A DNA stretch of 64,000 nt from Prunus persica. Lineage: Eukaryota > Streptophyta > Magnoliopsida > Rosales > Rosaceae. Where the stretch lies: positions 17,841,510 through 17,905,509 of the forward strand of contig NC_034015.1 of NCBI RefSeq assembly GCF_000346465.2, read 5' to 3'. The notes under the pieces are model-generated. The model was not told where the DNA came from, made no database searches, and saw only the letters and a program-made list of their open reading frames with translations. Both the position numbers and the translations under genes were made by a program. Of the stretch, positions 20,620-23,600 are shown one piece after another. The number at the start of each line of letters is the position of its first letter. Positions within the stretch are counted from its first letter, which is position 1.

Positions 20620-23600
20620 ATGAATATAGTTTGGCTCTTGGTGTTGATGGTTTTCTATAATGGGGTTGCCTCAAATAGGGGTAGCACGAATGTCTCTACA
20701 AGACCAGAATTTGTAAATGTTGGGGCTGTTTTCTCTTTCAATTCCATTGTTGGCAAAGTTGCTAAAGTGGCAATAGAAGCTGCCATTGAAGATGTGAATT
20801 CTGATCCAGCTGTTCTTGGTGGAACTAAGATGATAGTTCAAATGCAAGACTCAAATTACAGTGGATTTCTGGGCGTCGTTGAAGGTATGTCTTGCGACTT
20901 TGTTCACAGTTCGTAAGATCTCTCTTAAATGCATTATATAGGAACACTGTGAATTCTGATCCAGCTGTTCTTGCTGCAGCCTTACGGTTCATGGAGAAAG
21001 ACACAGTGGCCATAATTGGACCTGAGAATGCTGTCACAGCTCATATAATATCTCATATTGCAAATGAGCTCCAAGTTCCTCTATTATCATTTTCAGTAAC
21101 GGACCCCACCCTGTCTTCACTTCAGTTCCCATTCTTTGTTAGAACCACCCAGAATGATCTGCATCAAATGGCTGCAGTAGCCGCAATGATTGACCACTAC
21201 GGATGGAAAGAGGTAATTGCACTCTATGTTGATGATGACTATGGGAGAAATGGGATTGCTGCATTAGGGGATATGCTTGCTGAGAGACGTTGTAAGATCT
21301 CATACAAAGCACCTTTGGTCCTTGATCCTAACCAGAGTAACATCACTGATTTACTGGTTAAAGTGGCTTTGACAGAGTCTCGGATTATTGTTCTTCACGC
21401 TTATGCTGGTTGGGGTCCTCAGGTGTTTACTGTGGCCAAGTATCTTGGCATGATGGGAACTGGCTATGTCTGGATAGCCACTCACTGGCTAACTACTCAA
21501 ATAGATACCAACTCTCCTCTCCCATCAAGTATGATGGATGATATGCAAGGAGTTCTAACATTGCGCATGTACACACCAGAGACAGAACTGAAAAGAAAAT
21601 TTGTTTCTAGGTGGAGCAACTTGACTAGTGGACAGACATCTAAAGGCAAACTTGGGTTGAATGCTTATGGTCTTTATGCCTACGACACTGTGTGGTTGCT
21701 TGCTCATGCAATTAATGCCTTTTTTGATCAAGGAGGAAACATTTCATTTTCAAATGATTCAAGGTTGACTCAGCTGCGCAGAGGGGATCTGAATCTTGAT
21801 GCCATGAGTATCTTTAATGGAGGGAATCTGTTATTGCGTAACATTTTACAGGTTAATATGACTGGCATAACTGGCCCTGTTAAGTTCACTCCAGATAGGA
21901 ACCTCATTCATCCTGCATTTGAAATCATAAATGTGATTGGCACAGGGATTAGGAAGATTGGTTACTGGTCCAATTATTCGGGTTTATCAGTTGTGCCTCC
22001 AGAATACACAAAGCCACCAAACCGTTCGAGTTCAAATGAAAGCCTGTACGGCGTAATTTGGCCTGGACAAACAACACAGAAGCCTCGTGGTTGGGTATTT
22101 CCAAACAATGGAAGGAACTTGAAGATTGGAGTCCCAAAACGTGTTAGTTTTCGTGAATTTGTTTCATACGCAGAAGGCAATGACATGTTCACTGGATACT
22201 GCATTGATGTTTTTACTGCTGCATTGAACATGTTGCCCTATGCTGTTCCATACAAGTTCATTCCTTTTGGTGATGGCGTTAAGAACCCAACAAGCACTGA
22301 ACTTGTGCACAAAATCCAAACGGGTGTGAGTATCATATACAGAGCATTTCTTTAAACTTAAGAAGGTAGATATTTTTTCTGATTTTCCATTTGCTTCTTC
22401 CCTATAGGAATTTGATGGAGCAATAGGTGACATTGCAATCATCACCAACCTAACAAGGATGGCAGATTTTACACAGCCATTTATTGAATCTGGGCTAGTA
22501 GTTGTTGCACCTGTTAGGACAACGTTGAATTCTAATCCTTGGGCTTTTCTGAGGCCATTCAATCCAATGATGTGGGGCGTCACGGCTGCCTTCTTTCTCA
22601 TTGTTGGAACAGTTGTTTGGATTTTAGAGCATAGGTTGAACGATGATTTTCGGGGGCCTCCTAAAAAACAAATTGTCACTATTCTGTGGTGAGTAATAAG
22701 AAGTATCTCATGTTATCTCATTCTATGTTGGAAGCTTTATAATTCTCTACTGTGTTCAAGACATTGAGATAGTGTCTGTGAATTGGTGTTACTTTCTCAT
22801 AATGTCTATTTGTGGAGTTCACCATACTAGGATTGGCATCTTCTTGGTATAAATCCCACAATCACTTAAAATTTGTGCTTTCCTTCTGCAGGTTTAGCTT
22901 TTCAACTTGGTTCTTTGCCCATAGTAAGTAAATTCGCACTAATTTAGTAGCTTTTCCAGCAACCATGGGTTATAGCTGCTTCAGTAATGCTTATTTACTC
23001 TTTTTTTTTTTCTTTTTTTTTTTTGTTGGGATCTTATGCAGGAGAAAATACAGTCAGCACTCTGGGTCGCTTAGTACTAATTATATGGCTGTTTGTCGTT
23101 CTTATAATCAATTCAAGCTACACTGCAAGTTTGACCTCAATCCTTACAGTGCAACAGCTTTCTTCCTCCATCAAAGGCCTTGATACTTTGCTTGCAAGCA
23201 ATGACCCCATTGGCTACCAGCAAGGTTCATTTGCCAGGGGTTATCTAACTGGTGAACTCAACGTTGACGAGTCCAGACTCGTTCCTCTTATCATGCCAGA
23301 CGATTATGCTAAAGCCTTGAAAGACGGTCCCCAAAGAGGTGGTGTTGCTGCAGTGATTGATGAGCGTACATACATTGAGCTATTCCTCTCAAGCAGATGT
23401 GATTTCAGTATTGTAGGTCAAGAATTCACCAAAACCGGTTGGGGATTTGTAAGTTTCTCTTTTATCTATTATATCTATGACCATGGTAATACTCTTTTAT
23501 CAGATAACCTGACATGTTATATTACCAAATCAGGCCCTTCAAGACATTTTGATAAAACAACCTTAATATTGCTAAAGTGTTATATAAGCAGAACTGGTTG

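What the first reader, a model, noticed from the sequence alone, without database searches (positions are those of the whole stretch)
22450..22452. GLR B has lost the ligand-binding arginine through one base change
Codon 552 is CTA (Leu) in B but CGA (Arg) in its 98%-identical twin F. All other copies have Arg (TTSRTKM, TTGRTKM). This residue stands five before the Asp of the DFTQP motif, the position of the glutamate-receptor Arg (Arg485 in GluA2) that holds the alpha-carboxylate of amino-acid ligands. B is otherwise complete, so it may be a channel subunit that cannot bind ligand (a natural dominant-negative or ligand-independent subunit) or a very young pseudogene.
Basis: partly seen in the sequence, partly recalled or inferred. 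Interest (0 to 1): 0.8.

Follow-up and report, generated by a model that had tools for sequence, protein, structure and literature searches.

The report
Shared arginine loss in peach receptor
One copy of a peach glutamate-receptor-like channel gene really does lack the arginine that holds amino-acid ligands, but the change is shared with a dead peach copy and with almond copies, so it looks like an older variant in a duplicated, loosely constrained gene group rather than a fresh mutation.

Summary
Codon 552 of GLR B (22450-22452) is CTA (Leu); twin F has CGA (Arg). The residue aligns without a gap with the pocket Arg of AtGLR3.2/3.3/3.4 and GluA2. The window is peach chromosome 7 and B is one of four GLR3.6-like copies there. 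A copy at 13.55 Mb (H), now broken, also has CTA. Two full-length almond proteins have Leu while other almond copies have Arg. So the Leu is not an assembly error and probably not very young; one origin before the peach-almond split (5.88 Mya, PMC7004133) with gene conversion is simplest, but the protein tree does not show it (p-AU 0.31 with the column, 0.06 without). B is a mosaic: flanking sites join it to F, three internal sites including this one to H. B keeps the other pocket residues checked, but changes on its branch look near-neutral. Copy G and almond relatives changed another pocket Arg, R476H. Best reading: a redundant copy losing function while F keeps the site; a retained ligand-blind subunit remains possible.

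The parts
22450..22452 (+). Codon 552 of GLR B, CTA (Leu) where Arg is otherwise almost universal
20620..24135 (+). GLR B (GLR3.6-like), exons 20620-20884, 20980-22325, 22408-22688, 22892-22923, 23042-23448, 23653-24135; 937 aa, intact frame
   Evidence: Pfam ANF_receptor and Lig_chan
22408..22688 (+). Exon 3 of B, holding the end of LBD segment S1 with the GDIAIITNLTRMADFTQP motif
22451..23534 (+). Internal stretch of B in which the three informative two-against-two sites (22451, 23014, 23534) group B with copy H against F and G; 23014 lies in a poorly aligned poly-T run
56445..59952 (+). GLR F, twin of B, exons 56445-56709, 56803-58148, 58231-58511, 58715-58746, 58859-59265, 59470-59952; both pocket Arg present
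58273..58275 (+). Codon 552 of F, CGA (Arg)
19541..25198 (+). Duplicated block holding B; aligns with 55364-61011 (F) at 60 differences in 5642 aligned bases

Best explanation
B is a peach GLR3.6-like channel gene in a recent expansion (B, F, G, H on chromosome 7). Its ligand-binding domain carries an Arg-to-Leu allele at the alpha-carboxylate clamp that is not private to B. The Leu most simply arose once, in a B/F/H-type copy before peach and almond separated, and reached B, H and two almond copies by descent and by gene conversion between near-identical copies, while Arg copies (peach F, almond P0005/P0006) persisted. Mechanism (inferred): without the guanidinium group the pocket cannot grip the carboxylate, so either the clamshell does not close on amino acids or the domain folds badly and the subunit is retained or removed. 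With F supplying the intact site, B is probably a redundant copy drifting towards loss, as H already is. Shown: the codon, the intact frame, the sharing with H and almond, the mosaic pattern, the near-neutral substitutions. Inferred: single origin, loss of binding, redundancy, loss of function.
For: Codon and gene model. Alignment with AtGLR3.4/3.3/3.2 and GluA2. [quoted passage not shown] H has CTA plus a stop at codon 560 and a frameshift near codon 777. Almond P0002 and P0003 have Leu; P0005, P0006, P0007 and P0009 have Arg. dN/dS B-F 0.73 and B-H 0.93. On B's branch 9 of 12 counted coding changes are nonsynonymous (shared Leu counted in; three-state codon 751, Thr only in B, left out) against a neutral mean of 8.5, and no stop after 12 random substitutions is expected with probability 0.63. 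Other B-branch changes at conserved sites: Q104E (0 of 146 non-Prunus rows with a residue have Glu) and Q803R (0 of 141 have Arg). Work on pocket mutants of the GLR3.3 LBD failed because they were insoluble (Alfieri 2020 as cited in PMC9828246, passage seen).
Against: One Leu clade is not what the proteins show: the free tree needs two changes; p-AU 0.311 with the column and 0.0617 without it, and 0% of 200 bootstrap trees then unite the Leu rows, so single origin needs conversion. The frame is intact in B and in two almond Leu proteins, more than an old dead gene need show. Exons 3 and 4 of B, with M1 and the start of the pore, match F except at 552. Counts on B's branch are small and weak purifying selection is not excluded: coding changes are fewer per site than noncoding ones (0.39% against 0.62%), not significantly (p 0.26). 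No expression or binding data were available.
Confidence: 0.57

Rival explanations
1. B makes a stable ligand-blind subunit that joins F or other clade III subunits in tetramers and damps or retunes gating (natural dominant-negative or ligand-independent subunit), and has been kept for that role.
For: Intact frame and splice sites, the other checked pocket residues kept, Leu copies and Arg copies both present in peach and in almond, species dated to a split 5.88 Mya (PMC7004133, passages). A second copy lineage altered the other pocket Arg (R476H in peach G and almond P0009 and P0007), as if ligand sites were being varied.
Against: Substitutions on the B branch look near-neutral; H, with the same Leu, is broken; pocket mutants of GLR3.3 LBD were insoluble (PMC9828246 passage). 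No expression data.
Confidence: 0.22
2. B binds something else: a ligand without an alpha-carboxylate, or it is driven through its amino-terminal domain (for example by glutathione) with the LBD silent.
For: [quoted passage not shown] Most insect IRs, iGluR relatives, lack this Arg and sense other molecules (PMC7882480 passages).
Against: B keeps the other checked residues of an amino-acid site and shows no other remodelling there.
Confidence: 0.07
3. On the origin alone, and not exclusive of the readings above: Leu arose at least twice, once in peach (shared by B and H) and once in almond, rather than once before the split.
For: The free protein trees need two changes of the label; with the column itself removed one Leu clade is near rejection (p-AU 0.0617) and 0% of 200 bootstrap trees have it. 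Relaxed constraint would make repeats easier.
Against: It needs the same G-to-T transversion twice. The relevant nodes are open, conversion between copies would also scatter the label, and in peach the linked sites 23014 and 23534 also join B and H.
Confidence: 0.15
4. Assembly or base-call error in B.
For: Near-identical copies can be mixed in assemblies.
Against: B has T at 22451 with C at 22474, a combination in none of the other three copies (H has T and T; F and G have G and C). Leu occurs at two peach places and in almond.
Confidence: 0.02

Closest known systems
Plant clade III glutamate receptor-like channels, GLR3.6 type (pear, apple, strawberry GLR3.6-like)
   Same: Full ATD-LBD-channel architecture; about 86% identical to Pyrus GLR3.6-like proteins P0012-P0014; the SYTASLTSIL stretch is present in B
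   Different: Pocket Arg replaced by Leu; 148 of the 148 non-Prunus rows with a residue at this column have Arg (151 rows examined)
AtGLR3.2, AtGLR3.3, AtGLR3.4 (solved LBDs)
   Same: Asp, Ala/Thr, Phe, Glu, Tyr and the plant-specific Arg (R476 in B) all present
   Different: The carboxylate Arg is Leu in B
Insect ionotropic receptors (IRs)
   Same: iGluR relatives in which this S1 Arg is commonly lost (only 19 IRs retain it: PMC7882480 passage)
   Different: IRs are a strongly diverged family with other ligands; B is a near-copy of a normal GLR with one change among the pocket residues checked

Membership tests
Clade III GLR (GLR3.6-like) | ANF_receptor ATD and Lig_chan channel domain | tested here: met
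   PF01094 316.5 bits, PF00060 120.2 bits, both over cut-off; PF10613 (Glu-binding) 29.4 bits falls just under its cut-off of 30; F was not scanned for comparison
Clade III GLR (GLR3.6-like) | Nearest relatives are GLR3 proteins | tested here: met
   best solved matches AtGLR3.4/3.2/3.3; many of the best homologues are named GLR3.6-like
[quoted passage not shown]
   D545 A547 L552 F705 E749 Y752; Arg replaced. B is a GLR3 by descent, not shown to be an amino-acid receptor. Which Phe, Glu and Tyr are meant is my reading of the alignment
Clade III GLR (GLR3.6-like) | Plant-specific side-chain Arg (Arg11 of AtGLR3.3) | tested here: met
   R476 in B and F; His in G and almond P0009 (and P0007)
Clade III GLR (GLR3.6-like) | Ligand-gated cation conduction | not testable with these tools
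   needs electrophysiology
Pseudogene | Disrupted frame or splice sites | tested here: not met
   B intact; H disrupted
Pseudogene | Neutral substitution pattern | tested here: inconclusive
   near neutral but few changes
Dominant-negative or ligand-independent subunit | Expressed, assembles with other subunits, alters gating | not testable with these tools
   no expression, assembly or current data

The most novel reading that the evidence does not exclude
Peach and almond keep a set of near-identical GLR3.6 subunits whose ligand sites differ at single arginines: one kind with the full site (F, almond P0006), one without the carboxylate clamp (B, almond P0002/P0003), one without the side-chain Arg (G, almond P0009). 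The clamp-less kind is a natural ligand-blind subunit that tunes channels built with the others.
Probability: 0.15. Interest if true: 0.75.

Novelty: new variant of a known kind. Interest (0 to 1): 0.42.

Why it matters
Whether plant GLRs are truly gated by amino acids or carry them as a constant structural part is unresolved (PMC11479355, section 16 read). Laboratory pocket mutants of the GLR3.3 LBD were reported insoluble (PMC9828246 passage). B and F form a natural pair, 98.4% identical, differing at the key Arg with the other checked pocket residues kept, and almond has Leu and Arg copies too. If B is expressed and folds, it is a ready-made test of ligand dependence. If it is silent or unstable, it is a clear case of decay in a redundant receptor gene.

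Tried and rejected
Single recent loss private to B: rejected because H and almond copies share Leu. Assembly error: rejected on linked sites and repeated occurrence. F as a convert of present-day G: not favoured, since F lacks G's many unique changes in the same stretch; an older Arg copy or retention of the ancestral state fits better. Frame retention as proof of function: too weak, since no stop is expected with probability 0.63 after 12 random substitutions, indels not modelled. Trees of Prunus proteins: unresolved where it matters (15 rows; 12 rows, P0004, P0005, P0007 and P0008 left out; H stood in by its annotated protein P0022, which lacks the codon). Searches kept the column in question, without it, is less kind to one Leu clade. 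No structure prediction was run, as a model would not report binding. Literature: search listings showed no paper describing this Arg loss in peach or almond GLRs; that covers only the held open-licence library.

Corrected on re-checking: counts that I first took as non-Prunus (152 rows) include almond P0007; one search recounts 151 rows without it. Single origin was weakened; the odds of the best reading went from 0.60 to 0.57, of another ligand from 0.08 to 0.07, and of repeated origin from 0.08 to 0.15.

Full report
Where it is. The window is C7:17841510-17905509 of the own genome. Database proteins labelled Prunus persica PRUPE_7G223100 and PRUPE_7G106900 lie on a contig of the same length as C7, 22388614, so I take the genome to be peach. 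That it is the Lovell reference is recalled.

Observation. B has six exons, 20620-24135, GT-AG introns and 937 codons before the stop. Codon 552, at 22450-22452, is CTA, and F has CGA at 58273-58275. The two proteins differ at 15 of 937 residues. The Leu aligns without gaps with the Arg of AtGLR3.4, 3.3 and 3.2 and with the Arg of the GluA2 stretch LVREEVIDFSKPF. That this is Arg485 of GluA2 is recalled. [quoted passage not shown]

How unusual. In peach, 43 exon-3 loci were examined out of 45 matches listed; the two left out were second pieces of places already taken. 42 of 43 cover the column: 40 Arg and 2 Leu. Of 258 proteins listed by three searches (the first two lists capped at 120 of 1666 and 120 of 2316), 244 cover it: 237 Arg, 2 Leu, 2 gapped, and 1 each Gln, His, Ala.

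A second Leu copy. Near-identical copies lie at C7:19.88 Mb (G) and C7:13.55 Mb (H). H has CTA at the same codon, a stop at 560 and a frameshift near codon 777. G has Arg and a frame that stops about ten codons early. Over the aligned block B differs from F at 60 of 5642 bases, from H at 121 of 5571 and from G at 143 of 5640. In the gene body B, F and H are about equally far apart: BF 29 of 3506, BH 32 of 3516, FH 32 of 3508.

Mosaic. Nine gap-free sites split the four copies two against two. Six, at 20322-20383 and 24331-24484, join B with F. Three, at 22451, 23014 and 23534, join B with H; none joins F with H. Site 23014 is in a poly-T run and is weak. B carries T at 22451 with C at 22474, a combination in none of the other three copies, which speaks against a mis-assembled H read. 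The pattern fits gene conversion between copies, or shared ancestry of that tract.

Age. Almond has Leu proteins (P0002, P0003) and Arg proteins (P0005, P0006, P0007, P0009); P. mume P0004 and P. speciosa P0010 have Arg. Peach and almond are dated to 5.88 Mya with about 20 substitutions per kb (PMC7004133, passages). B and F differ by 1.06% over the block, less than that, so as a block B and F look younger than the species split, while Leu is found on both sides of it. The simplest account is one origin of Leu before the split and later shuffling among copies. Against it: the protein trees do not unite the Leu rows (two changes). One Leu clade has p-AU 0.311 when the column itself is kept but 0.0617 when it is removed, and then 0% of 200 bootstrap trees have it. 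A strict clade is thus near rejection. Conversion would explain that, and so would two origins, one in each species; almond DNA would decide. PMC7004133 also lists ionotropic glutamate receptor activity among functions enriched in Prunus-wide duplications (passage), and an earlier survey classed 23 of 167 Rosaceae GLR candidates as pseudogenes (PMC4995503 passage).

State of the pocket. B keeps R476 (aligned with the plant-specific Arg, Arg11 of AtGLR3.3), D545, A547, S704, F705, E749 and Y752; of these residues only 552 is changed. Peach G (identical to P0008 over 927 residues) and almond P0009 have His at 476 with Arg at 552; almond P0007 also has His there. In 151 non-Prunus rows position 476 is Arg in 146, His in 2, Gly in 2, not covered in 1; position 552 is Arg in 148, not covered or gapped in 3. 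The 476 change is thus less singular. F, almond P0005/P0006, mume P0004 and speciosa P0010 have both arginines.

Constraint. Pairwise dN/dS: BF 0.73, BH 0.93, FG 0.54, BG 0.62. Branch-specific coding changes: B 8 nonsynonymous and 3 synonymous, F 4 and 3. Codons with three states (591, 751, 916) are outside these counts; they include Thr751 found only in B and Tyr916 found only in F. With the shared Leu, B has 9 nonsynonymous of 12; simulation without constraint gives a mean of 8.5, and no stop in 63% of runs. B also changed Q104 to Glu and Q803 to Arg, residues that none of 146 and 141 non-Prunus rows carry there. Coding sites changed less than noncoding ones in all four copies, significantly in G and H only; for H part of that may be conversion, and its upstream region is much more diverged (67 of 809 against B). 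Constraint is weak but not shown to be absent.

Mechanism. Inferred: with Leu the LBD cannot pair with the alpha-carboxylate. Mutants of the GLR3.3 pocket were insoluble (Alfieri 2020 as cited in PMC9828246, passage), and mutation of the conserved Arg and Asp in insect IR8a reduces or abolishes cilia targeting (PMC7882480 passage), so poor folding or delivery is as likely as a stable ligand-blind channel. With F intact, loss of B would be tolerated. I hold decay at 0.57 and a retained ligand-blind subunit at 0.22.

Verdict. The base change is real and at the key residue. It keeps moderate interest because it offers natural near-identical receptor pairs in peach and, by protein sequence, in almond.

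Noticed in passing
C7:19.877 Mb (L011, L056) and almond P0009, P0007: Copy G and its almond relatives have His instead of Arg at position 476, the plant-specific ligand side-chain Arg; G also ends about ten codons early.
   Followed up: partly
window 20794-20818 and 20949-20973: A 25-base piece of exon 1 (GTGAATTCTGATCCAGCTGTTCTTG) is repeated exactly in intron 1 of B just before the exon 2 acceptor; F has an exact copy in exon 1 only.
   Followed up: no
window 8679-12009, 26473-29539, 46158-49511: GLR copies A, C and D look broken by frame changes or missing pieces in tblastn segments against B; none was modelled, nor was E (51312-54655).
   Followed up: no
window 32061-34472, minus strand: Transposase of the tnp2 family (Transposase_21, DUF4218, Transpos_assoc), as in CACTA elements (recalled), between GLR copies C and D.
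   Followed up: no
window 60308-60787, minus strand; the duplicated block after B near 24500-24960 should hold the same: Fragment of an RNA polymerase second-largest subunit (RNA_pol_Rpb2_7) in the duplicated block downstream of F.
   Followed up: partly
L057, upstream of copy H: The promoter-side region of H is much more diverged from B and F (67 of 809) than its gene body (32 of 3516 against B).
   Followed up: no
P0169, P0225, P0243: Three short GLR fragments (P0169 from Linum perenne, two unnamed) have Gln, His or Ala at the pocket Arg, so other losses may exist, perhaps in broken genes.
   Followed up: no
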